Notes under the pieces: generated by a model | The model's database searches: none | Seen by the model: the letters and a program-made list of their open reading frames with translations, nothing else | What the model was told of the DNA's origin: nothing | Shown: positions 7,789 to 32,244 of the stretch, in pieces | How positions within the stretch are numbered: position 1 is the stretch's first letter | Layout of the letters: each line of letters begins with the position of its first letter | Made by a program: the position numbers and the translations under genes | From: Calothrix sp. NIES-4105 | GTDB taxonomy: Bacteria > Cyanobacteriota > Cyanobacteriia > Cyanobacteriales > Nostocaceae | Length of the DNA: 64,000 nucleotides | Direction: 5' to 3' | Assembly: GCF_002368415.1 (NCBI RefSeq) | Contig: NZ_AP018290.1 | Span: 1,925,470 to 1,989,469 of the forward strand

Positions 7789-8050
7789 ATGCGTGTTAAC
7801 AGTAGTGTGATTTGAGAGTGCAGCTGCAATGCAAGATGTAGCTGTTGGGGGAAATTATCGCACTGTTCTTGACCTTTAGCACTGTTTGATACAGAACTTT
7901 CCATACGATTTAACCAAAGATAGTATAAGACACATAGTCCTGACTATTGGTATAAGTAATTCGGTTATTGACTGTAAACAAAAAATATTACCAGCTAGAA
8001 CGTGGAAACGCGCTAATATATAACACTGCGAAGTAATAACTCTGGGTAAG

Positions 8051-9187
8051 ATGACAAGGAACGGCATTGGTATTCGTACAGCAAATGTGCTTTCTCAAAG
8101 GGTAACAGGGCAAATTCACGTTTATGATGGTTTAGGAAAAGGAAAATCGCAAGCCGCTTTAGGTGTAGTTTTACGCTCAATCGGTTTAGGTATAAATACT
8201 CCTAATAATTACAATCGTGTTTTGCTGCTGCGGTTTCTCAAAGGTCCTGAACGCGACTACGATGAAGACGGCGCCATAGCAGCTTTGCAAACTGGTTTTC
8301 CGCATTTAATCGACCAAGTTCGTACTGGGAGAGCTGAGTTTTTTGGTTTAGAACAAATTACTAGTTTTGACAGACAAGAAGCAGCACGTGGTTGGGATGT
8401 TGCAAAAGGCGCCATTGCTTCTGGATTATATTCGGTTGTAGTACTGGACGAGATTAATCCGGTTCTTGATTTGGGTTTGCTTGATGTTGATGAAGTTGTT
8501 CGGGTTCTCAGATCAAAACCACACGACTTAGAAATAATTACCACGGGACGTGCGGCGCCGCAAAAGCTGCTAGATATATCTGATTTACATTCTGAGATGA
8601 AACCTCATCATCACGAATCAGCCATATTACAGGGGGTAAGTGGTATAGAAATATATACAGGAGCAGGCAAAGGTAAATCAACAAGTGCTTTAGGTAAAGC
8701 ATTACAAGCGATTGGTCGAGGTATAAATCACCCTGGTTCAACGCGCGTGTTAATAATGCAATGGCTCAAAGGGGGCAGCGGTTACACAGAAGACGCGGCA
8801 ATTGCAGCATTACAACAATCATATCCGGAAGTAGTAGACCATCAGCGTTGTGGACGCGACGCAATTGTATGGCGTAACTCACGGCAAGAGTTAGATTATG
8901 TGGAAGCTGAACGCGGTTGGGAAATTGCCAAAACGGCTATAGCTTCTGGGCTTTACAAAACCATCATTCTCGATGAATTAAACCCCACAGTCGATTTAGA
9001 ATTACTTCCAGTCGAGCCAATTGTCCAAACACTGCTTCGTAAACCGCGCGATACTGAAATTATTATTACAGGTCGCTGTCAAAACCAACCTGCTTATTTT
9101 GATTTAGCCACAGTACACTCAGAAGTATACTGCCACAAACACTACGCCAACCAAGGTGTAGAACTTAAGCGTGGAGTTGATTTTTAG
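8051..9187 (+). CDS. Tandem CobA/CobO-type P-loop protein (cobinamide adenosyltransferase family)
   Basis: 378 aa made of two similar halves. Each starts with a Walker A of the CobA/BtuR type: VYDGLGKGKSQAALG near residue 26 and YTGAGKGKSTSALG near residue 204. Each continues with a matching RGWDVAKGAIASGLYSVVVLDE or RGWEIAKTAIASGLYKTIILDE Walker B block and an EIITTGR or EIIITGR strand. CobA enzymes normally have one such domain and transfer adenosyl from ATP to Co(I) corrinoids as dimers. A fused pair would make a built-in pseudo-dimer. Both Walker A motifs are intact. Corrinoid adenosylation is inferred from family; no cobalamin gene is next to it. Confidence 0.8.
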   Translation: MTRNGIGIRTANVLSQRVTGQIHVYDGLGKGKSQAALGVVLRSIGLGINTPNNYNRVLLLRFLKGPERDYDEDGAIAALQTGFPHLIDQVRTGRAEFFGLEQITSFDRQEAARGWDVAKGAIASGLYSVVVLDEINPVLDLGLLDVDEVVRVLRSKPHDLEIITTGRAAPQKLLDISDLHSEMKPHHHESAILQGVSGIEIYTGAGKGKSTSALGKALQAIGRGINHPGSTRVLIMQWLKGGSGYTEDAAIAALQQSYPEVVDHQRCGRDAIVWRNSRQELDYVEAERGWEIAKTAIASGLYKTIILDELNPTVDLELLPVEPIVQTLLRKPRDTEIIITGRCQNQPAYFDLATVHSEVYCHKHYANQGVELKRGVDF

Positions 9188-9940: not shown

Positions 9941-10035
9941 CAAAGCTTGCCAATACAAGGCATCTATATGCTGTCAGATGATTTGGCTTACCCAAAAAAT
10001 CAAAAAAGCCCTTGCAATAAACGCTTTTGATTATA

Positions 10036-10107
10036 AGCCGGCAGTAGGATTTGAACCAACGACCTTCCGATTACAAGTCGGATGCACTACCACTGTGCTA
10101 TGCCGGC
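10036..10107 (-). tRNA. tRNA-Thr(TGT)
   Basis: On the minus strand the molecule starts and ends with the acceptor arms GCCGGC/GCCGGC. It has the D-arm AGCACAGTGGTAGTGC, an anticodon stem-loop TCCGA-CTTGTAA-TCGGA with anticodon TGT, and a T-arm with GGTTCAAATCC. No CCA is encoded. Length is 72 nt. Confidence 0.95.
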
Positions 10108-10522
10108 GTGAGGTTTAACTTTTTTGCTTAACAGTCATTGATTATAGCATACACTATTTTTTTGTAAATAGTTTTTTTGAATAAATTTTTGTGATTATGG
10201 TTTAGGTTTGAGGACGGGCGGGACGGCCATTCCACAAGACTGCTTATTCCACAAGACTGCCTATTTTACAATATTGTAATTTCTCTGTCTGAGGAATGAT
10301 TTATAAATTTTTGCGAATGTGGTTTATCTGTAAAAGGGTCAATGTGTCTAGCAGTTAGATGCAACTGTTGACAGTTCGCCTTAATCTTGGTTAAACCAAA
10401 GAAATATATCCAAGTAATTGTTTGACTGGCTTGCTCCCGCCTTAAAAAAGTAGGACGGCGCCACTAAGTACATTATTGGGTATGAAAATGATTATAGTAC
10501 TATTTTTCTTGGCAGAGAAAGC
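10108..10522. other. Spacer between tRNA-Thr and argF with short repeats
   Basis: Two direct copies of ATTCCACAAGACTGC lie at about 10230-10260, close to a related string at 34740. TTACAATATTGTAA at 10266-10279 is a perfect 14-bp palindrome and could be an operator for argF, but I do not recognise it. Its core ACAATATTGT recurs before dndD at 23079. Confidence 0.45.
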
Positions 10523-11443
10523 ATGGCAGCGTTGATTGGAAGAGATTTATTAGGTTTGGGGGATTTGACGAGTGAGGAAGTTGAGTCTCTACTGAAATTG
10601 GCAACCCAGTTGAAATCAAAACAGGTCAAGTTACAGTGTAATAAGGTTTTGGGACTGTTATTTTCAAAAGCTTCGACTCGAACTAGGGTGAGTTTTACGG
10701 TGGCAATGTACCAGTTAGGTGGACAGGTGATCGATTTAAACCCTAATGTCACTCAAGTCGGTCGCGGGGAGCCAACACAGGATACTGCTAGAGTGTTGGA
10801 TAGATATTTGGATATTTTAGCAATCCGTACTTTTGCTCAACAAGAACTCGAAACTTTTGCGAATTACGCCAAAATTCCCGTTATCAACGCATTAACAGAT
10901 TCGGAACACCCTTGTCAAGTTTTAGCCGATTTAATGACAATACAAGAGTGTTTCGGCTGTTTTCATGGCTTAACCTTGACTTATGTCGGTGATGGTAATA
11001 ATGTGGCTAATTCTTTAATGCTTGGTTGCGCTTTGGTGGGAATGAATGTAAGAATTGCCACACCGTCTGGGTATGAACCAGATGCTCTTGTCGTAGAAAC
11101 TGCTCGCAAAATTGCCAATAATAAAACCGAAGTTATTTTGACTAATGACCCACTAGCTGGTGTTAAAGGAGTAAATGTACTTTACACGGATGTATGGGCA
11201 AGTATGGGACAAGAACAGGAAGCATCGGATAGACTACCAATTTTCCAACCTTACCAAATCAATGAGCAATTATTAAGCCTTGCTGATCCCAACGCTATCG
11301 TTCTACACTGTTTACCAGCACACCGTGATGAAGAAATAACTGATGCTGTGATGGAGGGTTCACAATCGCGAATTTGGGAACAGGCTGAAAATCGTATGCA
11401 CGCTCAGAAAGCTTTGCTCGCAAGTATTTTAGGGGCAGAATAA
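10523..11443 (+). CDS. argF: Ornithine carbamoyltransferase
   Basis: Makes citrulline from ornithine and carbamoyl phosphate in arginine synthesis. The 306-aa length is normal. Signature motifs are all present: carbamoyl phosphate loop SKASTRTR (residues 50-57), HPCQ (near 133), the domain-2 nucleotide-like DGNNVANSL, and HCLPAHRDEE near the C terminus with the ornithine-binding Cys. ATG with GAGAAAG upstream is a convincing start. It is not in an operon with other arg genes; lexA follows after about 340 bp. Confidence 0.96.
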   Translation: MAALIGRDLLGLGDLTSEEVESLLKLATQLKSKQVKLQCNKVLGLLFSKASTRTRVSFTVAMYQLGGQVIDLNPNVTQVGRGEPTQDTARVLDRYLDILAIRTFAQQELETFANYAKIPVINALTDSEHPCQVLADLMTIQECFGCFHGLTLTYVGDGNNVANSLMLGCALVGMNVRIATPSGYEPDALVVETARKIANNKTEVILTNDPLAGVKGVNVLYTDVWASMGQEQEASDRLPIFQPYQINEQLLSLADPNAIVLHCLPAHRDEEITDAVMEGSQSRIWEQAENRMHAQKALLASILGAE

Positions 11444-11730
11444 ATATAGTGGTTCTTGGATTAAATATTAGGGGCTTGAGGTAAACGACATGATAATGAA
11501 TCTTAAAATCTTGTCAAGTGTTTTTAAATGTCGGCACCAAAAACTTTAAAGTTCATGCTTACCAGGTTCAGGTTTACTAAATTTTTGTTACTTTAAGTTT
11601 TTTGAGCCAGAAAACGAGTATACTTACTGATTAATAGGATTTCTTTTCTCCCTACGTTTCATCATTCTTGTCACGAATATAAATTTTTTGATCAAATATT
11701 CAAAAAGTATGGTGTTTTTGTGTTTTTTGT

Positions 11731-11744
11731 AGTACTAATGTTCT
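11731..11744 (+). promoter_or_regulatory. LexA (SOS) box upstream of lexA
   Basis: AGTACTAATGTTCT matches every position of the published Anabaena-type SOS consensus RGTACNNNDGTWCB. It ends 39 bp before the lexA start codon, so LexA probably represses its own gene here. Confidence 0.8.
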
Positions 11745-11783
11745 AAGGGAGATTTGTATTTCACCTCCTTAAATCTAGGTTAT

Positions 11784-12392
11784 ATGGAACGATTAACGGA
11801 AGCGCAAAAAGAATTGTACGAATGGCTGACGGAATATATCCGTATACATCAGCATTCGCCCTCGATAAGACAAATGATGCAAGCGATGAATTTAAAATCG
11901 CCGGCGCCAATTCAAAGTCGTCTTGAGCATTTACGCACAAAGGGCTATATCGAATGGAATGAGGGTAAAGCCCGTACAATAAGGGTATTGCGTGCATCAA
12001 GACATGGCATCCCTGTTTTAGGAACAATTGCCGCAGGCGGTTTAATTGAGCCTTACAGCGATGCAGTAGAGCATGTAGACTTCATGAACTTGGCATTGCC
12101 GTTACAAACTTATGCGTTGCGCGTTACGGGTGACAGCATGATTGAGGATTTAATCGCTGATGGTGATTTAGTTTTCTTGCGTCCTGTGCTTGAGCCTGAC
12201 TATTTAAAGAATGGCACCATTGTCGCTGCGCGGGTTGAAGGTCATGGCACAACTTTGAAGCGGTTTTATCGGGATGGAGAGATGGTTACTCTACAACCCG
12301 CGAACCGTAAATACAACCCAATTGAAGTAAGTGCTTCAAACGTTCAAGTTCAAGGTTCACTTGTAGCTGTATGGCGTACTGAGGTTCAGTAA
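11784..12392 (+). CDS. lexA: LexA repressor
   Basis: 202 aa. An N-terminal winged HTH (LTEAQKELYEWLTEYI...SPSIRQMMQAMNLKSPAPIQSRL) precedes an S24-type self-cleavage domain. The cleavage dipeptide A84-G85 (TIAAGGL), catalytic Ser118 (GDSM) and Lys159 (TTLKRF) are all kept, so RecA-stimulated autocleavage should work, unlike some cyanobacterial LexA homologues that lack these residues. ATG at 11784 follows GAGATTTGTATTTCACCTCC and starts the conserved domain directly; the upstream extension to 11754 is not conserved. Autoregulation is supported by the SOS box at 11731. Confidence 0.95.
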   Translation: MERLTEAQKELYEWLTEYIRIHQHSPSIRQMMQAMNLKSPAPIQSRLEHLRTKGYIEWNEGKARTIRVLRASRHGIPVLGTIAAGGLIEPYSDAVEHVDFMNLALPLQTYALRVTGDSMIEDLIADGDLVFLRPVLEPDYLKNGTIVAARVEGHGTTLKRFYRDGEMVTLQPANRKYNPIEVSASNVQVQGSLVAVWRTEVQ

Positions 12393-12487
12393 TTTTATAG
12401 AATAAGGCGCCGACGCAACACTTGTACCTTTTTGACCAACGAAGGTGATGAATAATTCTGTGGAGATGTAGTGTCTTACGTCTCTGC

Positions 12488-12738
12488 AATTGATCCCCCC
12501 AACCCCCCCCTTAATAAAGCTGCTGTGTACACACAAGTCTTTCAAAGTTACTTTTCTTATCTTTCTTATCTTTCTTTGTGCCCTTTGTGTCTTTGTGGTT
12601 TATTTCTTTAAGGAACCACAAAGGCACAAAGGACACAAAGGGGGGAAAATAAGGTGATTATTAAAGATGTGTGTACACGGTAGCTTAATAAAGGGGGGCT
12701 TTAAGAAGAACCTCTTAGCAAGGGGGGTTGGGGGATCA
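12488..12738. repeat. Nested inverted repeat of about 250 bp (MITE-like)
   Basis: Outer arms TTGATCCCCCCAACCCCCCC / GGGGGGTTGGGGGATCA, middle arms TTAATAAAGCT..GTGTACACAC / GTGTGTACAC..AGCTTAATAAA, and inner arms CTTTGTGTCTTTGTGGTT / AACCACAAAG...CACAAAG nest around one centre near 12607. The whole spacer before the first Dnd gene can fold into one long imperfect hairpin. No ORF lies inside. Confidence 0.7.
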
Positions 12739-12765
12739 CAATCCAATATTAAATTTGAATAATAT

Positions 12766-14277
12766 ATGTATCTAACCAAAACCAGGGTAGAAAAAACATT
12801 TAACCACATTAATTTAGCTAATAGATTTCAACTTTCAACTCAAATATTATTTCGTTCTGTTAAGGAGTCATCTCATAATTACCAAGTTAAGCCATCACCT
12901 GGGCGCCCGTATACACCATCTTGGTTGGTATTACGTCCTTATCAAACTCAAGCCATTACCAACTGGTTTAAAAGTAATGGTCGCGGTACATTGAAAATGG
13001 CAACAGGTAGTGGTAAGACAATTACTGCATTATCAATCACCTGTGAACTCTACAAACAAATTAAACTTCAAGTATTACTTGTAGTATGCCCTTATTGTCA
13101 TTTGGTAACGCAGTGGGCGCGCGAGTGTGAGAAATTCAACTTACAGCCGATATTAGCTTTCGAGAGTGTTAATAATTGGCAAAATCAGCTTTCAACTCAG
13201 CTTTATAATATACATTCGGGTACGCAAGAATTTTTAACTATTATTACGACTAACTCGACTTTAACCACAGATAGTTTTCAATCGCAGCTTAGATATTTTC
13301 CTGAGCGTACTTTAATTATTGGCGATGAAGCGCATAATTTAGGCGCCTCGAAAGTTGAAGAAAGTCTACCTCGGCAAGTGGGATTACGGTTGGGACTTTC
13401 AGCAACACCCGAAAGATATTACGATGAAGAAGGGACTCAATCTTTACTTAGCTACTTTGGAGCAGTTGTTAAGCCGGAATTTACACTAAAAGATGCAATT
13501 GAGCAAGGGGCACTAGTCCACTATTTGTATTATCCAGTCCTTGTAGAGTTAACCGAGACAGAGAGTATTGCGTATTCTAAGATTACACAGAAAATTGGAC
13601 GCAAGCTTTTGTTTAAAGGTAAAGAGAGTGCGAATTTAGCTGATATTGAGAATAACGAAGATATTACAAATCTGTTAATGCAGCGTGCTAGGCTGGTTGG
13701 AGCAGCCGAAAATAAGCTGAACGCACTACGCGAACTTATGCAGCGGCGCCTTTCGACAACTCATACATTATTTTACTGTAGCGATGGCTATCCCGCAGCA
13801 GGGGCAAAGTCAGACTTAAGCCAACTTAAGGCAGTTACTCAAATATTAGGCGTTGAATTAAATTATCGTATTACCACATATACAGCACAAACACCCCTAT
13901 CTGAACGAGAAAAAATACGGCGCCAGTTTGAAAGCGGAGAATTACAGGGTTTAGTAGCAATAAAATGTTTAGATGAAGGCGTTGATATTCCTGCAATTCA
14001 AACAGCCGTAATACTTGCGAGTTCAAGTAATCCTCGTCAGTTTGTTCAGCGTCGAGGTCGAGTTTTACGTCCACACCCTGGAAAAGAAAGGGCGACTGTA
14101 TTCGATATGATTGTCCTACCACCAGATTTAGATAGAAACACTCTTGAAGTTGAACGTAACTTACTCAGGAAAGAATTAAAGCGGTTTATTGAATTTGCCG
14201 ACTTAGCCGATAATGCGGGAGAAGCAAGAATTAAATTACTCGAATTACAAAAACGCTACGGCTTACTCAGCATCTAG
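12766..14277 (+). CDS. DEAD/DEAH helicase, Dnd-system restriction type
   Basis: A 503-aa SF2 helicase. Motif I is MATGSGKTITALS (about residue 78), motif II GDEAHNLG (near 187), motif III LSATPER, and motif VI QFVQRRGRVLRP near 425. An ILASSSNPRQF block precedes motif VI. It resembles the cyanobacterial family that accompanies dnd genes and is catalogued as a DNA phosphorothioation system restriction enzyme. No separate nuclease domain can be seen, so cleavage would need a partner or a cryptic site. It is the first gene of the island and precedes the second SMC ATPase on the same strand. Restriction of unmodified DNA is inferred from the family name and location. Confidence 0.75.
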   Translation: MYLTKTRVEKTFNHINLANRFQLSTQILFRSVKESSHNYQVKPSPGRPYTPSWLVLRPYQTQAITNWFKSNGRGTLKMATGSGKTITALSITCELYKQIKLQVLLVVCPYCHLVTQWARECEKFNLQPILAFESVNNWQNQLSTQLYNIHSGTQEFLTIITTNSTLTTDSFQSQLRYFPERTLIIGDEAHNLGASKVEESLPRQVGLRLGLSATPERYYDEEGTQSLLSYFGAVVKPEFTLKDAIEQGALVHYLYYPVLVELTETESIAYSKITQKIGRKLLFKGKESANLADIENNEDITNLLMQRARLVGAAENKLNALRELMQRRLSTTHTLFYCSDGYPAAGAKSDLSQLKAVTQILGVELNYRITTYTAQTPLSEREKIRRQFESGELQGLVAIKCLDEGVDIPAIQTAVILASSSNPRQFVQRRGRVLRPHPGKERATVFDMIVLPPDLDRNTLEVERNLLRKELKRFIEFADLADNAGEARIKLLELQKRYGLLSI

Positions 14278-14461
14278 GCAACGGATACAACGGATGTAAC
14301 GGATGAATTGGTTACAAACAAAATCTAAGTATTTGTAATTTGTAAGGTGGGCACCGCCCACCAAGACCTCGATCTGGTTTAAGGCGCCTACCTTACATAG
14401 CATTCCAAAATAGTTGTCTAAAATAACTTATCCGTTACATCCGTTCATAATCCGTTGCCAA
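14278..14461. repeat. AACGGAT/ATCCGTT inverted repeat, copy 2
   Basis: GGCAACGGATACAACGGATG.AACGGAT at the left and ATCCGTTACATCCGTTCATAATCCGTTGCC at the right flank a core that includes a smaller hairpin (GGTGGGCACCGCCCACC). It begins directly after the helicase stop codon. Copies 1 and 3 lie at 657-757 and 31437-31538. Confidence 0.8.
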
Positions 14462-14631
14462 TATTTATTTACAAACAAAAAATGTATTTAATATTACATT
14501 AAATTTGTGTAAACCTATATATAGACAGGCTTTTGTTAAATCATCTTGCCAATTTAAACACAGTGAGTTCACGGATAGAAAAATTTGGTATGAGGAAGTA
14601 CGATAGTATCAAATGTATATAGAAAACACCT

Positions 14632-14847
14632 ATGAAAAGGCAAAGTAAGAAGGGTGCCGACTTAGAGAATACAGAAAATAACTTTGACGATATTGAGGAT
14701 GTGCAGGCGCCTATATACACTGCACCAGAAGAAGTGAGAAAAATTATCGAGATGGTGTGGCAGTTGGAGAAGAATCGACTTGATAGAAAAAGCTTTAGTC
14801 ATATAAGTGATGATATTTTAACTATTATTAAGAGTGTGGTTCAATGA
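14632..14847 (+). CDS. 71-aa Dnd-island small protein, coupled to SMC ATPase
   Basis: A small acidic protein (LENTENNFDDIEDVQAPIY) with a C-terminal amphipathic region (RKIIEMVWQLEKNRLD, ISDDILTIIKSVVQ). Its stop overlaps the next start in ATGA, so the two are translationally coupled and probably form a complex. Proteins of this size next to DndD-like ATPases have been labelled DNA modification system-associated small protein; I recall the label but cannot verify it. It has no visible relation to DndE. Confidence 0.6.
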   Translation: MKRQSKKGADLENTENNFDDIEDVQAPIYTAPEEVRKIIEMVWQLEKNRLDRKSFSHISDDILTIIKSVVQ

Positions 14848-16916
14848 AGCTCATATCAATAAGTCTTTGTAACTTTCGCTCGTTTTATGGTAGGACACCA
14901 GAAATTTTTCTCGCGGGTGACGAAGTAGAAAATACAACGGTAATTCATGGGAATAATGGTGTTGGGAAGACGAGTTTATTAAATGCGTTTACATGGGTGC
15001 TTTATGAGAAATTTAGCGCTGCGTTCGCGTCGGCAGAACAGTTGGTGAATAAACGCGCGGTTGCGGAAGCTTCTATTGGGCAAGCTGTGGAGTGTTATGT
15101 AGAAATTACCTGGGAACACGACAGTAAGCGTTACCGTGCGAAGCGTGAGTGTCGAGTGTATAGAACTGAGTCGGATGTGGAAGCAGGTAAGACTAATATG
15201 TATATGTTGGTGACGAGGGATGATGGACGGTGGTTTGTCCCTGACCAACTCCCAGAGGAGATTATTAATCAGATTTTGCCTTGTAGTTTGCACCAGTATT
15301 TCTTTTTTGACGGTGAACGGATAGAGAAGATTGTTCGCAATGACAAGAAAGCTGAAATTGCTGAAGCTACGAAAATGCTGTTGGGAGTGGAGGTAATTAA
15401 TCGTTCGATAAGGCATTTGGGAGAAGCAAAACGCGCGTTGGAAGCTGAACTACGCACCATAGGTGACTTAGAAATTAAGAAGTTGCTGAAGCAGCATAGT
15501 AATATTGAGTCTCAGATTGAGGCAATTAGTAAGCGCTCTTTTGAAATTCAGCAAGAGGTAGAATATCAAAATACATTTAAGCAGGAAGTTAGTGGTCGTT
15601 TACGTGAATTAAGTGCTGTTAAGGAGCTACAGGAAAGGCGCCAATATTTGGAGTCACAGAAAGACTCATTGCAGAAGCAGATAGTTAAAAGTAAAGATAG
15701 TATAAAACGATATATATCTAATCAAGGTTACAGTGTATTACTTTCAGAAATTAATATACAGTTCCGTAATATTATTGATAATTTACAAGAGTCTGGTGAC
15801 TTTAAGTCGGGGATATCGCGCGAATTTGTGATTAATTTACTTAACGGTAGTAAATGCATTTGCGGTAGCTATTTACACGAACATAGTCAAGCGCGTAAGC
15901 ATGTAGAAAATTGGTTAGAAAAAGCAGGTTCTTCCACAGTAGAGGAAACATCGATTCGGATGACCGCACAAGTTGATGAAATCGACAAGCAAGCGGTATC
16001 ATTTTGGCAAGAAGTAGATAAAGAGCAGGTAAGGATTAACGAGGCTAGGCAGACACTTAACCAAGTTGAAACAGAATTAGGAGAAATTAAGGAAAAACTG
16101 CGGAAAAACCCAAGCGAAGAAATTCGGGATATCGAACAGCGTATAGATGATATTGAAGCCAAAATTTCGGAGTTAATTTTTGAACAAGGTCGCAACCAGC
16201 AGCAAACCGAGACTTTAAATGCCGAATTAGATGATTTAAATAAACAAATTGCCAAGCAAAAGCTCAATGAAGAACGGCAACTACTCGTACAGCGTCGTAT
16301 TGGCGCCACTACTGATGCTATCGACAGGTTGAGTGAAGTTAAAACACGCCAAGAGAATCATTTTCGTTATTCGCTTGAAAAGCGGGTGCAAGAAATATTC
16401 AGTGCCATATCCCCGGCGCCATATACTCCGAAAATCAGCGACAAATATGAACTAACCCTAATGGAGAACACCCTTGGTGTAGAAATGCCCGTTGCTGCAT
16501 CAACAGGAGAAAATCAAATACTCAGCCTTTCCTTTATAAGTAGCATCATCGACAAAGTGCGCGAGTGGAGCGAAAAGAAGAAAATGTTAATGCTTCCCGA
16601 AAGCAGCACTTTTCCAATAGTCATGGACTCCCCATTTGGTAGCTTAGACGCAATATCACGGCGCCATATAGCAAAAATAGTTCCAGAAATGGCAAACCAA
16701 CTAGTAGTGCTAGTCACAAAAACCCAGTGGAGGGGAGAACTGCAAGAAGAAATAGCAAACCGCGTTGGTAAAGAATATGTTTTAACTTACCACTCCTCGA
16801 AACCTGACTGCGAACAAGATTATATAGAACTTAGAGGAGTTCGATATCCTTTAATTAGGCAAAGTCCCAACGAATTCGAGTATACCGAAATAGTAGAGGT
16901 TAATCACGATGGTTAA
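14844..16916 (+). CDS. Second DndD-like SMC/Rad50 ATPase with C-x-C hook
   Basis: 690 aa. Walker A GNNGVGKTS starts at residue 36, the DndD-like FFFDGERIEKI block lies near 153, long coiled coils follow, then C338-I-C340-G at the hinge. Past the second coiled coil come an ABC-signature-like STGENQILSLSF and Walker B PIVMDSPFGSLD near residue 595. The layout is that of DndD/Rad50-type ATPases, and the paired cysteines resemble a zinc hook. It differs from the 661-aa DndD at 23159, which has no such cysteines. Coupled to the 71-aa protein; its role could be in restriction (DNA scanning or loop handling) rather than modification. That is inference. Confidence 0.75.
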   Translation: MKLISISLCNFRSFYGRTPEIFLAGDEVENTTVIHGNNGVGKTSLLNAFTWVLYEKFSAAFASAEQLVNKRAVAEASIGQAVECYVEITWEHDSKRYRAKRECRVYRTESDVEAGKTNMYMLVTRDDGRWFVPDQLPEEIINQILPCSLHQYFFFDGERIEKIVRNDKKAEIAEATKMLLGVEVINRSIRHLGEAKRALEAELRTIGDLEIKKLLKQHSNIESQIEAISKRSFEIQQEVEYQNTFKQEVSGRLRELSAVKELQERRQYLESQKDSLQKQIVKSKDSIKRYISNQGYSVLLSEINIQFRNIIDNLQESGDFKSGISREFVINLLNGSKCICGSYLHEHSQARKHVENWLEKAGSSTVEETSIRMTAQVDEIDKQAVSFWQEVDKEQVRINEARQTLNQVETELGEIKEKLRKNPSEEIRDIEQRIDDIEAKISELIFEQGRNQQQTETLNAELDDLNKQIAKQKLNEERQLLVQRRIGATTDAIDRLSEVKTRQENHFRYSLEKRVQEIFSAISPAPYTPKISDKYELTLMENTLGVEMPVAASTGENQILSLSFISSIIDKVREWSEKKKMLMLPESSTFPIVMDSPFGSLDAISRRHIAKIVPEMANQLVVLVTKTQWRGELQEEIANRVGKEYVLTYHSSKPDCEQDYIELRGVRYPLIRQSPNEFEYTEIVEVNHDG

Positions 16917-17058
16917 TAAAACAATCAAGGGTATATCCCAATATTAAAATTGAATTAAATGTTTATTTTAACCCTTACCCTAAAGGGTAGGCTTTACGAG
17001 CAAAGCCCGCCTGCGCGGGCTAAGATGCAAAATTTAGAATTTACCATCTACCAAAATT

Positions 17059-17532
17059 ATGACAGAAACAGGAAAAATTAGAATAGCAAAAGACAAAGCC
17101 GAACTAGTGAGGTCTTTAACCGTCTCAGGTGGTAAAACAGGAGCATTTCAAACCTTTGCCGATGTCGTCGTATTTGCCGCTACACTAGGCGCCAAGCATA
17201 AAAAGCGCGTTCCACTAGAAGAAATATCTAAAAAAGAACCAGGACCAATACGTATAGAGCAATTCATATCAATGGGGTACGACGTAGTAATTAAATTACT
17301 AGCAATCGTTGAAACTCAAGACGTTAAAATACTATCACCAACCGAAGAAGAATTAGAAAAACAACGTCATCAAATATTTGAAGAATACGCCAATGGAGGG
17401 CTAGAAATAATTCAAAATGAAGTACGTGGAGCAGTAGACTATCTAGAACGAATCTTATTACTACTCAGCTACGAACGAACAAGCAAAGATAGAACAAACG
17501 AAGAATTTGATTTAAGTAGATTTTTATCTTAA
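17059..17532 (+). CDS. Dnd system-associated protein 4
   Basis: 157 aa. The start (RIAKDKAELVRSL, then GAFQTFADVVVFAATLGAKH) and the IEQFISMGYDVVIKLLAIVE block match the small family found beside cyanobacterial dnd genes and catalogued as dnd system-associated protein 4. No enzymatic motif is visible; it is mostly helical. It follows the second ATPase after about 140 bp on the same strand and probably works with it and the helicase. Function is unknown. Confidence 0.7.
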   Translation: MTETGKIRIAKDKAELVRSLTVSGGKTGAFQTFADVVVFAATLGAKHKKRVPLEEISKKEPGPIRIEQFISMGYDVVIKLLAIVETQDVKILSPTEEELEKQRHQIFEEYANGGLEIIQNEVRGAVDYLERILLLLSYERTSKDRTNEEFDLSRFLS

Positions 17533-17660: not shown

Positions 17661-17996
17661 TTGATTTTAATTATTCGTGAGCGTGCAACCGAAGAGCAAC
17701 TGGAAGAAATGCTTCAAGTTTGGGGAGTAATTATTAAGATAGTTGTCGATATCGAGCGCGAGATACTAGCAGGTGGGAGTGGAAAACATTACGAGTGTGA
17801 ACAAGAACTGTTAAAAGACGGCTCTTTGCAACGTAATTTATGGGGTGCCGATTGGAATCCTTATACATACACAATTACTTTTGAATCATTAATTAATATC
17901 CGCCCTAGTCAAAATAATCGTACAATGATAGTACAGTCGCCAGAGTTAAGAGAACGAATTACGCAAATTACCACTCGATTACTAGGAGGATTATAA
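17661..17996 (+). CDS. DUF5674-type protein, copy 1
   Basis: A 111-aa protein with ILIIRERATEEQLEEML, VVDIEREILAGGSGKHYECE and ITFESLINIRPSQNNRT. It matches a family of unknown function that I recall as DUF5674. The start is TTG with TGAGGC upstream; the paralogue at 31912-32244 also starts with TTG. The stop overlaps the next gene in TAATG, so it is coupled to a 116-aa partner. The same two-gene order is found at the other end of the island. A toxin-antitoxin-like role is possible but unproven. Confidence 0.65.
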   Translation: MILIIRERATEEQLEEMLQVWGVIIKIVVDIEREILAGGSGKHYECEQELLKDGSLQRNLWGADWNPYTYTITFESLINIRPSQNNRTMIVQSPELRERITQITTRLLGGL

Positions 17997-18346
17997 TGCC
18001 TAACTGGAATCTTATTGAAGAAGGATTTTTGAAACTAACCCACCAAATGCAGCTTGGTGAGCTAGCATCATGCTTGGCACGTATTAAAGCATGGTCGCTA
18101 ACTGGTGTTCTAAACCGTGAAGTTGTTTCGATAATTCTCGATGAAGCTATATTATATACATCTTTATTAGAGCGAGAAAACCCAACTACTGAATTAGCTC
18201 AATTACAGCAATTACTACAAGATTGGCGGCACTCGTGGCTAACTATTTCTGTTTCAGATGCCGATATTTTAAATATTTCAGCAAAAAGTGCAGCCTGGAG
18301 TGATCGATTATTAGATATGTCTGGGTTACTACAACTTGTTAATTAA
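17996..18346 (+). CDS. DUF5674 partner protein, copy 1
   Basis: A 116-aa helical protein (MPNWNLIEEGFLKLTHQMQL, LASCLARIKAW, WSDRLLDMSGLLQLV) that I do not recognise. It begins within the stop codon of the DUF5674 gene. It resembles weakly the 129-aa partner at 31526-31915, mainly in the C-terminal W-S-x-R helix. The two genes look like a transferable module. No catalytic motif is seen. Confidence 0.55.
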   Translation: MPNWNLIEEGFLKLTHQMQLGELASCLARIKAWSLTGVLNREVVSIILDEAILYTSLLERENPTTELAQLQQLLQDWRHSWLTISVSDADILNISAKSAAWSDRLLDMSGLLQLVN

Positions 18347-18639: not shown

Positions 18640-19602
18640 ATGAAAGACACTTCTTACTATTCAAATATTTTTTCTAAGCTTAACGTAAGCAAAAGTAAAG
18701 AATTAGGAACTGCTAATCATAAACCAATACTAATATTAAGTCTTATTGATTTAATTACACAAGGAATAATTGCAAGGAATCAGATTCTGGTATCTGATCA
18801 ACTTGTTGATACTTTTAATAAATACTGGAATGTACTAGGCACAGAAACACGCAAAGGAGGCTTACATTATCCATTTTATCATTTGCGAAGCGAAGGTTTT
18901 TGGCATTTAATCTTTAAACCCGGTTATGAGGGATTACAAAATAAAACAGTAAAGAACTTAAGACCGAAAACAGTTAATCAATTAAAACTAGCAGTAGAAT
19001 ATGCTTATTTAGATGACGAATTGTTCAACTTACTACAAAATGAAGGGACAAGAAGAGAATTAGTTGAATCGTTGATTTCAGCATGGTTTTCTAATTATGC
19101 AAATGAGATTGAAGAAGTTATTACAATAAATCAGAAGTTTCAGGACTTATCACCAGAGTTAGATATTTCCGAAACAACAAATTACGATGCTCAATCGAAA
19201 GAAGCTTTAAAAACATCAATTATCAGAAATGCTTTTTTTAGAAAAGCCGTATTACATACTTATGAATACAAATGTGCTTTTTGTGGGTTAAAAGTTATGA
19301 AGTCAAGCAAATATCATATTGTAGATGGAGCGCATATCAAGCCCTTTGGAAAATTCCGTGATAGCAGAATCAAAAATGGTATATCGCTATGCAAAAATCA
19401 CCATTGGGCATTTGACAGAGGCTTATTTACTGTTGATGATAAATACAAAATTGTGATGAGTACAAAGTTTGAAGAGGAATCTCCAAATGCTCAACCCATG
19501 AAAAGCTTTCATGGCAAAAACTTATATTTGCCAAGTTTAGAAAAGTTTTATCCAGACTTAGAAGCTTTTGAGTGGCATCGCCAAAATAAGTTTGATAATT
19601 AG
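18640..19602 (+). CDS. SBD-HNH endonuclease, phosphorothioate-DNA-binding type
   Basis: 320 aa. The N-terminal half (KLNVSKSK, ANHKPILILSLIDLI, then HYPFYHLRSEGFWHL at 76-90) looks like the sulfur-binding domain of type IV enzymes such as ScoMcrA, in which a Tyr-Pro pair helps form the sulfur pocket; Y77-P78 could be that pair. The C-terminal half is an HNH nuclease: CAFCGLKV, DGAHIKPFG, NGISLCKNHHWAFDRG. It should therefore cut phosphorothioated DNA, which conflicts with the dnd modification genes beside it. It ends 12 bp before the convergent dndB stop. ATG at 18640 is chosen over TTG at 18628. Confidence 0.8.
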   Translation: MKDTSYYSNIFSKLNVSKSKELGTANHKPILILSLIDLITQGIIARNQILVSDQLVDTFNKYWNVLGTETRKGGLHYPFYHLRSEGFWHLIFKPGYEGLQNKTVKNLRPKTVNQLKLAVEYAYLDDELFNLLQNEGTRRELVESLISAWFSNYANEIEEVITINQKFQDLSPELDISETTNYDAQSKEALKTSIIRNAFFRKAVLHTYEYKCAFCGLKVMKSSKYHIVDGAHIKPFGKFRDSRIKNGISLCKNHHWAFDRGLFTVDDKYKIVMSTKFEEESPNAQPMKSFHGKNLYLPSLEKFYPDLEAFEWHRQNKFDN

Positions 19603-19614
19603 TTAAAAAATAAC

Positions 19615-21210
19615 TTATAACTTAGGTGGTAGCCCTAATTCTTGTGGGTCAACAAAATCACCCTCAAAATTCATCGTTTTATTTCCAAAAGTCCTAGTTT
19701 TAGCGAACTCTTTCCTTAATTCTGAAATTTCCATAGAATCTTTCATTCCACCTAAGATGTATACTAATAGCTTGGCTGCTAAGTCTTTTCCTGCTACTGT
19801 GATTCGCTTGCGGTTCGTATCATATAAAACTCCGTGCCAAAGTGAGTTAGTAAATTCCATGTTGCTGAACCCGCCTTTTTTATCAAATGTACGAAGCTTT
19901 TTGAAAATTTTCTCAAGCGATAACCCCTTTTTAAATACGAGAATGCCTAATGCTTGTACTAGAGCTACTTGACCTACAGGACGGAAAAGCATATTTCCCT
20001 CGCCGCCATTTTTTTCAAAACTAAATCTTCTTAAGGAAGGTGTATCTTCGTCTTCTAGTATCCTATAGCTAGGAAGACTGGCTAAGTAATCAAAAAGTGT
20101 ATTAAACTCTTTTATTCCTTCTTCGAGTTCTTCATCGTCAGGACGCATGGATATTAAACCCTTTTCTTTTTTCCAATGTAGATATTTTTGTCCCAAGTAC
20201 CGCTCTGACATTTCTTTTAGTGCTTGCAGCGTTGTTAAAACGGTTGACTTCGGCGCCACTGTTGCACTATTCCAATTTATGCGGGCTTGTCTATCTTCAC
20301 GTTGTTCAAGTAGTGGATGAGTAACAGCTATTTTTCTTGCAACAATAGAAAAACCATCATCTTCGTCTAACTGGGTTAGTTGACCTTTAGTTAAAGGAAC
20401 AGCCATCAGGTTTACATGAACAAAAATTGAACGTACTCGTCTTGTTGCTTGCTGCCTCGTCTCTCCTGCTGTAACCGCTGAAATAAACTCAATACCAATT
20501 TTTTCTTGTGGCAGCTTCTCCAAATAATCTGAGGATAAATCAAATTGTTCAATTAAATCATTAAGTTTTATCGATGTTTCGTATGGAGTTTTATCTTTCT
20601 TGTAACGCTGAAGTTGGCGCCTATTAAGCAACTCTATCAAACCTTGGACTCCCATTAACCGATGCTGTCCATCAAGTGCGTATATTGTTACGTTTTCTGT
20701 ATTTACATTAAGTAAACCAAATCTACCTTCTTCATCAAGTGAAGTAAATTCAGCAGCAGACCTTAATGCTCTTCCTTCGCTATCCCATTCTGGCGCCTGC
20801 GGAGTATCTACCCAAGGTTGGTTTAGCACAACCAAAACTGGAGGAAACTTATGATGCTTACGTGACGCTAAGTACTGAACCAAAGCAGCTTGACGCGACC
20901 AGTCTAAAGGACGTTGGTTAATTTCATCAATACTATCGGCATCAATTTCAATATTGCCACTATGAGGATTATACTTATGGCTCAGTAGAGGCAAATGTGA
21001 AGCAAAGTTAACTCGACTTGCGAACCATTCCAACGTAACAGAGCTTACATATGCCTCCGTACCACCCATTTGAGTTTTTTGTGCGGGTATTAAATTTCCA
21101 CTGTCTAAATAATTTTCTAGGAGCAACGAAAGTATTTTTTGATTCCTCTGTTCAGGTTCGTTATACTGATGGAGAATGTCGGAGATTAAGTCTGATTCGC
21201 TTGAAATCAT
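19615..21210 (-). CDS. dndB: DndB, DGQHR-domain protein of the Dnd system
   Basis: 531 aa from ATG at 21210 (MISSESDLIS); the frame stays open to 21510 but that part overlaps dndC and is not family-like. The hallmark DGQHRLMGVQGL lies near residue 220, with FVHVNLMAVPLTKGQ and EDGFSIVARK following. From work in Streptomyces and Salmonella, DndB represses the dnd operon and tunes modification. Here it is divergent from dndC with a 221-bp shared promoter region that holds an inverted repeat, which fits a regulator. It is convergent with the SBD-HNH gene. Confidence 0.85.
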   Translation of the reverse strand: MISSESDLISDILHQYNEPEQRNQKILSLLLENYLDSGNLIPAQKTQMGGTEAYVSSVTLEWFASRVNFASHLPLLSHKYNPHSGNIEIDADSIDEINQRPLDWSRQAALVQYLASRKHHKFPPVLVVLNQPWVDTPQAPEWDSEGRALRSAAEFTSLDEEGRFGLLNVNTENVTIYALDGQHRLMGVQGLIELLNRRQLQRYKKDKTPYETSIKLNDLIEQFDLSSDYLEKLPQEKIGIEFISAVTAGETRQQATRRVRSIFVHVNLMAVPLTKGQLTQLDEDDGFSIVARKIAVTHPLLEQREDRQARINWNSATVAPKSTVLTTLQALKEMSERYLGQKYLHWKKEKGLISMRPDDEELEEGIKEFNTLFDYLASLPSYRILEDEDTPSLRRFSFEKNGGEGNMLFRPVGQVALVQALGILVFKKGLSLEKIFKKLRTFDKKGGFSNMEFTNSLWHGVLYDTNRKRITVAGKDLAAKLLVYILGGMKDSMEISELRKEFAKTRTFGNKTMNFEGDFVDPQELGLPPKL

Positions 21211-21285
21211 AAATAATGTGTCAAAAGTGTTAATTTGGACAAGATTCACTATATACAAAGTAGAGAAATAATAAAAATAGTTTTT

Positions 21286-26063: not shown

Positions 26064-26132
26064 TGTATACTCAGTAATCAAACTACTAGCTTCGTTTGAA
26101 ATCGTTACGCATACTACCTTCTAACTCGCGTT

Positions 26133-26195
26133 GGTGCGTGACGCCACTAAATCACTAGCTTCGTTTGAAATTGTTAATAGCGTCACGCACCCTAC
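26133..26195. repeat. GGTGCGTGACGC / GCGTCACGCACC palindromic repeat
   Basis: A 63-bp element with 12-bp arms, inserted with its right arm 2 bp before the dndE start codon. A degenerate second copy precedes it (26083-26118, CTAGCTTCGTTTGAAAT...). Other copies: 41105-41168, 41411-41476, 44373-44436; a decayed one at 29064-29130. Confidence 0.8.
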
Positions 26196-26196
26196 T

Positions 26197-26580
26197 ATGG
26201 AACCACCACTTGAACGTATTAAAATATCGCAAACGGCAAAAGAGCAATTAATTAAGCTCAAGCGCATTACGAAAATAGACCAATGGAATATATTATGCCG
26301 TTGGGCATTATGCCGTTCGCTAGCAGAACCAACTCCTCCCTCCCCAGTACCTATAAAATTAGATAGTAATGTTGAAATGAATTGGCGCGTATTTGGAGGC
26401 GAGATTTCCGATATGCTGTTAATCGCCCTTAAACAGCGCTGTTATAACGATGGTTTTGGTACAACAAAAGAAGTTTTAGCAGAACAGCTAACATTACACC
26501 TACACCGTGGCATTGGTTATTTGGCTGGCGACCAAAAAATTAAGAAAATTGAAGATTTAATTGAATTAACAGTAAATTAG
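26197..26580 (+). CDS. dndE: DndE, DNA sulfur modification protein
   Basis: 127 aa from ATG at 26197 (MEPPLERIKIS). The blocks QWNILCRWALCRSLAEPTPP, MNWRVFGGE and LHLHRGIGYLAG are those of DndE. DndE is a small basic protein that forms tetramers, binds DNA and is needed with DndC and DndD for phosphorothioation. An open frame extends 22 codons upstream, but it lies wholly inside a palindromic repeat, so the later ATG is chosen. Unlike the usual dndCDE order, about 1 kb of foreign genes and repeats separates it from dndD, and no good ribosome site is visible because the repeat abuts the start. Confidence 0.92.
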   Translation: MEPPLERIKISQTAKEQLIKLKRITKIDQWNILCRWALCRSLAEPTPPSPVPIKLDSNVEMNWRVFGGEISDMLLIALKQRCYNDGFGTTKEVLAEQLTLHLHRGIGYLAGDQKIKKIEDLIELTVN

Positions 26581-31448: not shown

Positions 31449-31538
31449 AGCGGATGTAACGGATAAGCTATTTGTTATAAACAAAAACTTGTTATCTAAA
31501 ATCAACTATCCGTTACATCCTAGAGTCATCCGTTGCTA
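31437..31538. repeat. AACGGAT/ATCCGTT inverted repeat, copy 3
   Basis: GGCAACGGATAGAGCGGATG.AACGGAT faces ATCCGTTACATCC...CATCCGTTGC, with TTTGTTATAAACAAA between. It overlaps the 3' ends of two convergent genes, as copy 1 does. Confidence 0.8.
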
Positions 31539-31915
31539 ACTGACCGTTCGTATGTTTGTGAAATTTCTGATACTCTTTGTGACCATTGTTGCGCTTGGGA
31601 AGACGCCTGGGTTCGCGTCTCTAAATTGTCTGTTGAATCAGACCAAATTTTTTCCTTATCAAACAGCCAACATGTTAGAACACGTCCTAAATCAACTAGT
31701 TCTGCTGCTTGGTCAATATCATCCTTTTTGACCATATCTGGTACAGTCCACTCGATAAAATACCTGCTTTCTTTAGCAAGATTTAATATTGCTTGTTGTT
31801 GCGATGCGTCAGTAAACAAGGTTTGGATGGAAGCTAAGTTGGCGCCTAACTGTTGCAAGCGGGTAGATATATCATTACTTGTAAAGTTTTGTTGCTGTAA
31901 AGTGAAGTTCGTCAT
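31526..31915 (-). CDS. DUF5674 partner protein, copy 2
   Basis: 129 aa, helical (TRLQQLGANLASIQTLF, AAELVDLGRVLTCWLFDKEK, SSQAQQWSQRVSEISQTYE). It is the second gene of the pair and starts in an ATGA overlap with the DUF5674 gene. It resembles the 116-aa protein at 17996 only weakly, mostly in the C-terminal helix. Not recognised otherwise. Confidence 0.55.
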   Translation of the reverse strand: MTNFTLQQQNFTSNDISTRLQQLGANLASIQTLFTDASQQQAILNLAKESRYFIEWTVPDMVKKDDIDQAAELVDLGRVLTCWLFDKEKIWSDSTDNLETRTQASSQAQQWSQRVSEISQTYERSVSNG

Positions 31916-32244
31916 ACGCCACCTAAAAATTCTATAATAATCTGGCTAATTCTTTCTCTTATTCTAGGGTCAAGTACTTCCATTGAGCGATTTTGGCGAG
32001 GACGAAGGTTAACCATTGACTCGTAGCTAATTTTTTTGTCTATAATGCCAAAGCTGGCGCCCCAGATATTTTCTTGCTTGCTACCATCTTTTAACAATAC
32101 TTGTTCACAATCATAATGCATATCTCCCCCCCCAGCTAATACTCGCCGTTCAATATCAACTGCTGTTTTAATATAAAATCTATGCTCTTCAAGCATTTGC
32201 TCGATTTGTTCAGTGGTGGCAGAATTACGTAGCAACAGAATCAA
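31912..32244 (-). CDS. DUF5674-type protein, copy 2
   Basis: 110 aa. MILLLRNSATTEQIEQML, VDIERRVLAGGGDMHYDCE and SYESMVNLRPRQNRSMEV align along their full length with the protein at 17661. Both use a TTG start and both overlap a helical partner gene. The two pairs point in opposite directions, one inside and one at the right end of the island. Function unknown. Confidence 0.65.
   Translation of the reverse strand: MILLLRNSATTEQIEQMLEEHRFYIKTAVDIERRVLAGGGDMHYDCEQVLLKDGSKQENIWGASFGIIDKKISYESMVNLRPRQNRSMEVLDPRIRERISQIIIEFLGGV

What the first reader, a model, noticed from the sequence alone, without database searches (positions are those of the whole stretch)
18640..19602. Phosphorothioate-sensing SBD-HNH endonuclease inside a phosphorothioation locus
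The N-terminal domain looks like the sulfur-binding domain of type IV enzymes, and the C-terminal part is an intact HNH nuclease. Known SBD-HNH enzymes cut phosphorothioated DNA and are incompatible with dnd genes in the same cell. Finding one 12 bp from dndB, with all motifs intact, is paradoxical. Options: it recognises a different sequence context, is inhibited by a neighbour (for example the Panacea protein or a DGQHR protein), or uses the modification as an activating signal as SspE does.
Basis: partly seen in the sequence, partly recalled or inferred. Interest (0 to 1): 0.78.

Follow-up and report, generated by a model that had tools for sequence, protein, structure and literature searches.

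The report
Sulfur-mark-reading nuclease within its writer operon
A DNA-cutting enzyme built to recognise sulfur-tagged DNA sits, with its key residues conserved, among the genes that put the tag on; in cyanobacteria this is a recurrent arrangement and not a one-off, so the enzyme is more likely a working part of the tagging defence system than an enemy of it.

Summary
ORF 18640-19602 (320 aa) is a sulfur-binding domain (8h0l, TM 0.86) plus an HNH nuclease, pocket and active-site residues present, inside an intact dnd locus of a Calothrix-like genome. The gene 12 bp away is a convergent DGQHR protein, not canonical dndB. The 'paradox' is recurrent in cyanobacteria: 39 of 386 genomes carry the protein; in 34 it lies on dndC's strand, 93-3503 bp upstream. 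In a named-genome scan 74 of 80 loci have dndC or dndD within 10 kb. Loci without it often hold a canonical dndB there (both: 0 of 33; dndB without SBD-HNH: 24 of 60; but 4 of 80 named loci have both). Best reading: an SBD-HNH recruited as a restriction effector that reads the host's own phosphorothioates, as DndI or SspE do. Against it: two SBD allele classes swap on near-identical dnd backbones, most tested relatives cut PT-DNA, and self-protection is untested. That SBD-type HNH nucleases may be Dnd restriction components was published in 2024; the SRA-less cyanobacterial form, its fixed place and its avoidance of dndB are what this adds. Panacea is not a general inhibitor.

The parts
18640..19602 (+). 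SBD-HNH nuclease, 320 aa (alternative TTG start 18628); SBD about aa 1-150, helical linker about aa 151-191, HNH part about aa 193-320
18718..18723 (+). codons of H27-K28 (sulfur-pocket pair equivalent to ScoMcrA H116-R117)
18868..18873 (+). codons of Y77-P78 (sulfur-pocket pair equivalent to ScoMcrA Y164-P165)
19273..19416 (+). HNH / zinc-site core, C212 to D259
   Evidence: C212, C215, N246, C251, H254, H255, D259 in 94 of 94 deduplicated homologues, D229 and H232 in 93 of 94
12766..14277 (+). DEAD/DEAH helicase, TIGR04095 dnd_restrict_1, PbeA-like
   Evidence: TIGR04095 667 bits, cut-off 600; PADLOC PbeA 553 bits
14844..16916 (+). PbeC-like ABC-type ATPase
   Evidence: PADLOC PbeC 1100 bits
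17059..17532 (+). DNA phosphorothioation-associated protein 4
   Evidence: TIGR04062 196 bits
19615..21210 (-). DGQHR-domain protein (DndB superfamily, not canonical DndB), convergent, 12 bp between the two stop codons; the longest ORF starts at GTG 21510 inside dndC, the ATG at 21210 is likelier
   Evidence: TIGR03187 186 bits
21432..23051 (+). dndC, sulfurtransferase
   Evidence: TIGR03183 698 bits; SGGKDS PP-loop
23159..25144 (+). dndD
   Evidence: TIGR03185 669 bits
25614..26063 (+). SocA/Panacea-domain protein (rare in related loci)
   Evidence: PF13274; 0 of 93 and 1 of 80 loci
26131..26580 (+). dndE
   Evidence: TIGR03184 129 bits, PF08870 151 bits
27275..28618 (-). second DGQHR / DndB-family protein
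   Evidence: PF14072 103 bits, TIGR03187 101 bits, TIGR03233 77 bits (cut-off 328); shares little beyond the DGQHR motif with canonical DndB of L076
29991..31448 (+). DNA phosphorothioation-associated putative methyltransferase
   Evidence: TIGR04096 683 bits

Best explanation
It is an SBD-HNH nuclease that has become a fixed but optional effector cassette of the cyanobacterial Dnd module. Inferred mechanism: DndCDE writes phosphorothioates (PT) on the host chromosome; the SBD reads them; PT binding holds, licenses or redirects the HNH nuclease so that host DNA survives and incoming DNA without the right mark is nicked or cut, as DndI and SspE do with an unrelated sensor domain. Shown here: domain identity, intact pocket and active-site residues, conserved linkage and direction upstream of dndC, purifying selection, rarity in genomes without dndC. 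Inferred, not shown: that the SBD binds PT, that it binds the mark made by its own DndCDE, and that PT gates the HNH domain.
For: Linkage: 39 of 386 cyanobacterial genomes carry it above 150 bits, 36 of them have dndC (94 of 386 overall; p 1e-21 without regard to kinship) and 34 have it on the same strand, upstream, 93-3503 bp from dndC, a few broken copies included. Outside the window's own family 15 of 18 SBD-HNH genomes have dndC against 37 of 325 others, p 4e-11. Named scan: 74 of 80 loci with dndC or dndD in view, 79 of 80 with at least one dnd-associated gene; 15 of the 80 repeat a survey locus. NF045808 in the same 386 genomes adds only matches that begin at profile position 127 or later, i.e. 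the HNH side; five of those genomes lack dndC, and their N-terminal parts were not examined. A classical anti-PT enzyme should be common in genomes without PT; for this clade the opposite is seen. 29 linked cyanobacterial copies form one clade, support 100/99. Of 94 deduplicated homologues P78 is kept in 92 and the zinc/HNH set in 93 or 94; K28 is K in 80, Q in 14. dN/dS 0.16-0.20 to two Calothrix copies. SBD-HNH distances correlate with those of DndC, DndD and DndE at 0.78-0.83, within the range that DndC shows with the other genes of the locus (0.43-0.90). Broken SBD-HNH beside intact dndC: 8 of 118 loci, the two sets overlapping, so the nuclease can be lost without the writer. Precedent: DndI is reported as a PT-sensing nickase that spares PT self-DNA (PMC11662687, abstract and passages).
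Against: Two SBD allele classes (lid Y77 with a loop like GLQPKT; lid L77 with a loop like GGRPQT) do not follow the writer: 5 changes on the DndD tree against 4.6 for shuffled labels, likewise DndE; L036 and L048 have DndE rows identical in the compared columns but different classes. If the loop sets sequence context, reader and writer are not tightly matched. Most tested relatives act on PT-DNA, the opposite sign: SprMcrA and five of seven further homologues (PMC7461809, passages), others in PMC6224610. Copies intact by my length test without dndC in view: L072 (G011, matched only from residue 34), L185, L208, L213, and three cut by a contig end (L154, L168, L176). L052 keeps a 3'-shortened copy beside a damaged dndC. 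The cassette evolves about twice as fast as its neighbours, which fits an arms race as well. The Fisher tests ignore kinship.
Confidence: 0.5

Rival explanations
1. Context mismatch: it is a classical PT-dependent type IV enzyme that cuts PT-DNA in a sequence context other than the one its own DndCDE makes, so it attacks phages, plasmids or rival dnd elements carrying foreign PT; it travels with the dnd locus as an exclusion weapon.
For: Most characterised SBD-HNH enzymes act on PT-DNA and sequence context matters (PMC7470945 passages; PMC7461809 sections 24 and 27, which name this option). SBD allele classes swap independently of DndD and DndE. Faster evolution than the neighbours. The window protein has the HK/YP pocket of active enzymes.
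Against: Does not explain why the protein is nearly confined to dndC-bearing genomes and to one place in the locus. Would need every dnd backbone to avoid both SBD allele classes.
Confidence: 0.28
2. Regulator or governor: the protein stands in for canonical DndB in the slot upstream of dndC and limits PT load, for example by cutting or nicking over-modified DNA or by binding PT in the dnd promoter region.
For: Slot sharing with canonical DndB: 0 of 33 SBD-positive loci have it, 24 of 60 SBD-negative do, p 3.7e-6. On the DndC tree SBD-HNH changes state 14 times, at least 10 on well-supported branches, and in 10 independent contrasts DndB goes the other way in about 5 and never the same way, median p 0.06. 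DndB is reported as a repressor of dndCDE (PMC4507180, abstract and passages).
Against: Four of 80 named loci have both (L166, L172, L183, L205); the contrast test does not reach 0.05 in the median; the HNH active site is invariant or nearly so, which a pure regulator would not need.
Confidence: 0.12
3. Passenger in a defence island: the linkage is only the usual clustering of defence genes and the enzyme has no functional tie to Dnd.
For: In six plasmid records (Tolypothrix, Chondrocystis, Hymenobacter, Variovorax, Azospirillum, E. coli) the stretches read hold a homologue and no match to the window's dnd proteins. A second copy in the window's genome, on contig C3, has no such match within the 20 kb read.
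Against: Same strand, same side and within 3.5 kb of dndC in 34 of 39 genomes, in two gene orders; one clade.
Confidence: 0.07
4. Inert or decaying gene, or a protein kept silent by a neighbour.
For: 8 of 118 loci have a broken copy beside an intact dndC.
Against: 96 of 118 loci have both intact; dN/dS 0.16-0.20; active site conserved; Panacea nearly absent elsewhere, DGQHR1 not always present.
Confidence: 0.03

Closest known systems
SBD-HNH and SBD-SRA-HNH PT-dependent type IV enzymes (ScoMcrA, SprMcrA, EcoWI-type; NCBIfam NF045808)
   Same: SBD fold, HK/YP-type sulfur pocket, HNH domain; no SRA, as in SprMcrA
   Different: embedded in a dnd locus; under the NF045808 cut-off (125 of 180 bits); most of those tested act on PT-DNA, and under 3.6% of predicted ones were near dnd (PMC7461809 section 24)
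SBDHga1 (PDB 8h0l; Hahella origin is from recall)
   Same: closest solved SBD, 34% identity, TM 0.86
   Different: solved as an isolated domain; no paper on it was listed by my searches, so its sequence preference is not cited here
wHTH(SBD)+SAD(SRA)+HNH nucleases of Dnd loci (Rakesh, Aravind and Krishnan 2024, PMC10853773)
   Same: PT-reading N-terminus plus HNH in a Dnd locus, proposed as a restriction component (698 taxa)
   Different: here no SRA domain, and upstream of dndC instead of downstream of the modification genes; the word cyanobacteria does not occur in that main text; its supplementary data were not seen
DndI and SspE (DUF262 + DUF1524 HNH)
   Same: HNH nuclease tied to a PT writer, PT sensed by a hydrophobic site (PMC11662687 passages)
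   Different: unrelated sensor domain with a DGQQR NTPase motif; neither Pfam domain is found here
PbeABCD
   Same: PbeA- and PbeC-like genes lie upstream in the same locus
   Different: P0001 matches no Pbe model in PADLOC at E 0.01; 11 of 33 SBD-positive loci show no PbeC match in the stretch held, some cut by contig ends
Bsp48385I
   Same: an SBD-HNH next to dndA-E and dndFGH (PMC7461809 section 27)
   Different: a single case with low activity regardless of PT, thought to lie on a mobile element

Membership tests
PT-dependent type IV SBD-HNH endonuclease (ScoMcrA/SprMcrA type) | N-terminal SBD fold | tested here: met
   8h0l E 4e-22 by sequence, TM 0.86 by fold
PT-dependent type IV SBD-HNH endonuclease (ScoMcrA/SprMcrA type) | sulfur-pocket residues (HR/HK and YP) | tested here: met
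   H27 K28, Y77 P78
PT-dependent type IV SBD-HNH endonuclease (ScoMcrA/SprMcrA type) | intact HNH active site | tested here: met
PT-dependent type IV SBD-HNH endonuclease (ScoMcrA/SprMcrA type) | binds and cleaves PT-DNA | not testable with these tools
   needs purified protein and PT-DNA
PT-dependent type IV SBD-HNH endonuclease (ScoMcrA/SprMcrA type) | not found with a dnd cluster of the same specificity | tested here: inconclusive
   strongly linked to dnd; both specificities unknown
NCBIfam NF045808 PT-DNA_restrict | score over the curated cut-off of 180 bits | tested here: not met
   125 bits; 0 of 386 cyanobacterial genomes over the cut-off
wHTH/SBD+SAD+HNH nuclease of Dnd loci (PMC10853773) | encoded in a Dnd modification locus | tested here: met
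wHTH/SBD+SAD+HNH nuclease of Dnd loci (PMC10853773) | middle SAD(SRA) domain | tested here: not met
   Pfam finds HNH_2 only at E 0.01; residues between SBD and HNH are helices in the model
wHTH/SBD+SAD+HNH nuclease of Dnd loci (PMC10853773) | immediately downstream of the modification genes | tested here: not met
   upstream of dndC in 34 of 34 linked genomes
DndI / SspE | DUF262 domain with DGQQR-type motif and DUF1524 | tested here: not met
   Pfam finds neither at E 0.01
DndI / SspE (works like) | PT on host DNA protects from, or licenses, the nuclease | not testable with these tools
   inference from linkage only

The most novel reading that the evidence does not exclude
A type IV, modification-dependent nuclease whose sign has been reversed by capture into its writer's operon: the same SBD pocket that normally triggers cleavage of PT-DNA now marks self, giving a compact restriction-modification system (DndCDE plus one 320-residue SBD-HNH) that takes the DndB slot again and again across cyanobacteria.
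Probability: 0.3. Interest if true: 0.75.

Novelty: new variant of a known kind. Interest (0 to 1): 0.55.

Why it matters
SBD-HNH enzymes are usually presented as enemies of PT-bearing DNA. A clade that lives inside PT-writing loci with its pocket and active site intact makes a direct experiment possible: how can a PT-reading nuclease and a PT writer share a cell. It also offers a candidate restriction component for cyanobacterial Dnd loci (whether these genomes have DndFGH was not settled here) and a set of natural allele swaps on near-identical dnd backbones with which SBD sequence preference can be tested.

Tried and rejected
Canonical DndB as the 12-bp neighbour: rejected, it is a DGQHR protein. 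Panacea as general inhibitor: rejected, nearly absent elsewhere. DGQHR1 as obligatory partner: rejected, 25 of 33 against 39 of 60. SBD-HNH as a substitute for Pbe: not supported, PbeA and PbeC are commoner in SBD-positive loci (15 of 33 against 8 of 60; 22 of 33 against 23 of 60; kinship and contig ends not corrected). Strict exclusion of DndB: rejected, 4 of 80 named loci have both. Tight reader-writer matching: not found. One clade of all dnd-linked copies, Chlorohelix included: not in the best tree, not rejected either (p-AU 0.11).

DndFGH: the family dnd_assoc_3 (TIGR03238) gave no match in 386 genomes, but no control genome rang either, so this says nothing about absence. DndF and DndG were not searched.

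Rows dropped: three HNH-only genomes (G113, G229, G091) from the 42; L070, whose DndC match is a divergent PAPS-reductase-like protein, from the 33/60 counts, though it is still; the window itself is not in the 33/60 counts. Fourteen survey pieces (broken, cut, SBD-only or short) were left out of alignment A1, five of 80 named copies out of the 94-row count. The tree used 36 rows that I chose from the 94, plus 8 plasmid rows. The DGQHR1 query of my searches began at 21252, which is no start codon (ATG is at 21210).

A search for PT motifs in Nostoc-type cyanobacteria listed only PMC8569181, of which I saw abstract, outline and a term search, so the host PT context is unknown to me. No paper on the Hahella SBD was listed.

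Full report
What is there. The frame 18640-19602 (+) is a 320-residue protein. Residues 7-147 match the solved sulfur-binding domain SBDHga1 (8h0l, E 4e-22), and residues 180-277 match the HNH part of TagI (6ghs, E 1e-6). A profile of 34 homologues places H27-K28 on ScoMcrA H116-R117 and Y77-P78 on Y164-P165, residues reported to hold the sulfur (PMC6224610 and PMC7470945, passages). The AlphaFold2 model (mean pLDDT 81) finds 8h0l first, TM 0.86 on the target, with ScoMcrA and SprMcrA SBD chains further down. Pfam finds no SRA domain.

Surroundings. Upstream lie a PbeA-like helicase (TIGR04095), a PbeC-like ATPase and TIGR04062; downstream a convergent DGQHR protein, then dndC, dndD, a Panacea protein, dndE, a second DGQHR protein and TIGR04096. 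DndC, DndD and DndE pass their curated cut-offs; the PP-loop and the Walker A motif are in place.

Survey. In 386 cyanobacterial genomes of at least 90% completeness, 42 (26 of 140 genera) match P0001 at E 1e-15; 39 exceed 150 bits, the other three being HNH-only. The DndC family rings in 94 of 386. Thirty-six of the 39 have dndC, and in 34 the gene is on the same strand upstream of dndC, 93-3503 bp away. Of the three without a DndC match, G164 has a dnd-like locus with a divergent PAPS-reductase-type protein beside DndD, DndE, PbeC and PbeA matches, G011 has only an assoc4 match nearby, and G127 lies on a 12-kb contig with a broken copy. The window's family is nearly all dnd-positive (42 of 43), so kinship inflates the overall test; outside it the association is 15 of 18 against 37 of 325. 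In a scan of named genomes the best 80 loci (of 248 confirmed) are 79 records with cyanobacterial titles and one Binatia record; 74 of 80 have dndC or dndD in view. Three of the other six are cut by a contig end.

The slot. Gene maps show two main orders: assoc4 - slot - DGQHR1(-) - dndC, and DGQHR1(-) - DGQHR(+) - slot - dndC. The slot holds SBD-HNH or, often, a canonical DndB of about 395 residues on the other strand (PF14072, 315 bits for L076). No SBD-positive survey locus has that DndB (0 of 33), 24 of 60 SBD-negative do (p 3.7e-6). On the DndC tree SBD-HNH needs 14 changes, at least 10 on starred branches; in 10 independent contrasts DndB goes the other way in about 5 and never the same way, median p 0.06. 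Four of 80 named loci carry both, so this is avoidance, not exclusion. Other proteins seen in or beside the slot: an AIPR protein (L049; L047 has one of the same cluster), a GmrSD_N protein of 797 residues (L075), a further DGQHR-type protein (L105), and in L110 a MauG-like protein.

Constraint. Among 94 deduplicated homologues the zinc and HNH residues are invariant or miss once; P78 is P in 92, K28 is K in 80 and Q in 14, Y77 is Y in 60, L in 22, Q in 8, I in 3. Against two Calothrix copies dN/dS is 0.20 and 0.16, while seven neighbours lie at 0.05-0.11. Of 118 loci (survey and named sets, overlapping), 96 have SBD-HNH and dndC both intact and 8 a broken SBD-HNH with intact dndC; three have an SBD-HNH intact by length with a short or divergent dndC (L052, L070, L138), and seven have none in view.

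Reader and writer. SBD-HNH distances correlate with those of DndC, DndD and DndE at 0.78-0.83, on different subsets per gene. But the two allele classes of lid and base-contact loop do not follow DndD or DndE (5 changes, shuffled mean 4.5-4.6), and DndC only weakly (5 against 7.1; 22-24 of 500 shuffles as low). Two loci with DndE identical in the compared columns carry different classes. This is the strongest result against a tightly matched cognate reader.

Elsewhere. A Chloroflexota plasmid (Chlorohelix) has the homologue beside annotated dndB, dndE, dndD and dndC genes. A Picosynechococcus plasmid has it near TIGR04096, dndD and dndE, with only part of a dndC found by tblastn. Stretches from Tolypothrix, Chondrocystis, Hymenobacter, Variovorax, Azospirillum and E. 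coli plasmid records hold no match to the window's dnd proteins. The tree of 44 chosen rows puts 29 linked cyanobacterial copies in one clade (100/99) and the plasmid-type cyanobacterial orphans, the window genome's second copy among them, in another (99/98); rows outside cyanobacteria have long branches and unsure places.

Literature. Lutz 2020 (PMC7461809, sections 24 and 27 read) found under 3.6% of predicted PT-dependent enzymes near dnd and named mutation, inactivity or different context as explanations. Rakesh 2024 (PMC10853773, section 17 read, other passages by term search) reports wHTH(SBD)+SAD+HNH nucleases in Dnd loci of 698 taxa and proposes them as restriction components. Tang 2024 (PMC11662687, abstract and passages) reports DndI as a PT-sensing nickase. 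So the principle is in print. The searches listed no paper that I recognised as describing the SRA-less cyanobacterial clade, its fixed place or its avoidance of DndB; they cover an open library only, I opened few of the papers listed, and no supplements.

Judgement. The reading that fits most is recruitment of an SBD-HNH into the Dnd module as a PT-sensing effector (0.5). Context mismatch is the serious rival (0.28), favoured by the allele swapping and by most of the known biochemistry. One binding assay and one PT map would decide between them.

Noticed in passing
G000 contig C3 109493-110392 (L005:9430-10401): The same genome has a second full-length SBD-HNH (47% identical) on a 366-kb contig, of a clade found on Nostoc- and Tolypothrix-type plasmids, with no match to the window's dnd proteins within the 20 kb read.
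   Followed up: partly
window 17661-18346 (+) and 31526-32244 (-): A DUF5674 protein (found by Pfam at 17661; look-alike by eye at 31912) with a small partner ORF occurs on both sides of the dnd locus in opposite directions, like a duplicated gene pair.
   Followed up: no
L070:8988-10541 and L072:8566-11412: An ORF matching only the SBD part (181-190 aa) stands near an SBD-HNH gene in two cyanobacteria outside the window's order.
   Followed up: no
L049:9334-10542 (AIPR), L075:12498-14891 (GmrSD_N), L105:5056-7041 (DGQHR): Other proteins, some of defence type, lie in or beside the same slot between TIGR04062 and the DGQHR gene; the slot may be an exchange site for effectors.
   Followed up: partly
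L046:9701-10675: A LAGLIDADG endonuclease gene lies directly upstream of dndC; ORFs of the same cluster stand there in L069 and L093.
   Followed up: no
L217 (Chlorohelix plasmid) 9980-17107: An SBD-HNH (34% identical) lies at the end of a cluster with two genes annotated dndB and dndC, dndD, dndE on a Chloroflexota plasmid.
   Followed up: partly
L215 (Chondrocystis plasmid) 8001-8969 and 16218-16952: Two SBD-HNH matches stand on the same plasmid stretch, without matches to the window's dnd proteins.
   Followed up: no
dndC matches 42 of 43 genomes of the window's family, so Dnd is close to universal there, against 52 of 343 other cyanobacterial genomes searched.
   Followed up: no
P0001 residues 99-106: The window protein has an insertion in the base-contacting loop of the SBD that most of the 34 aligned homologues lack.
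   Followed up: no
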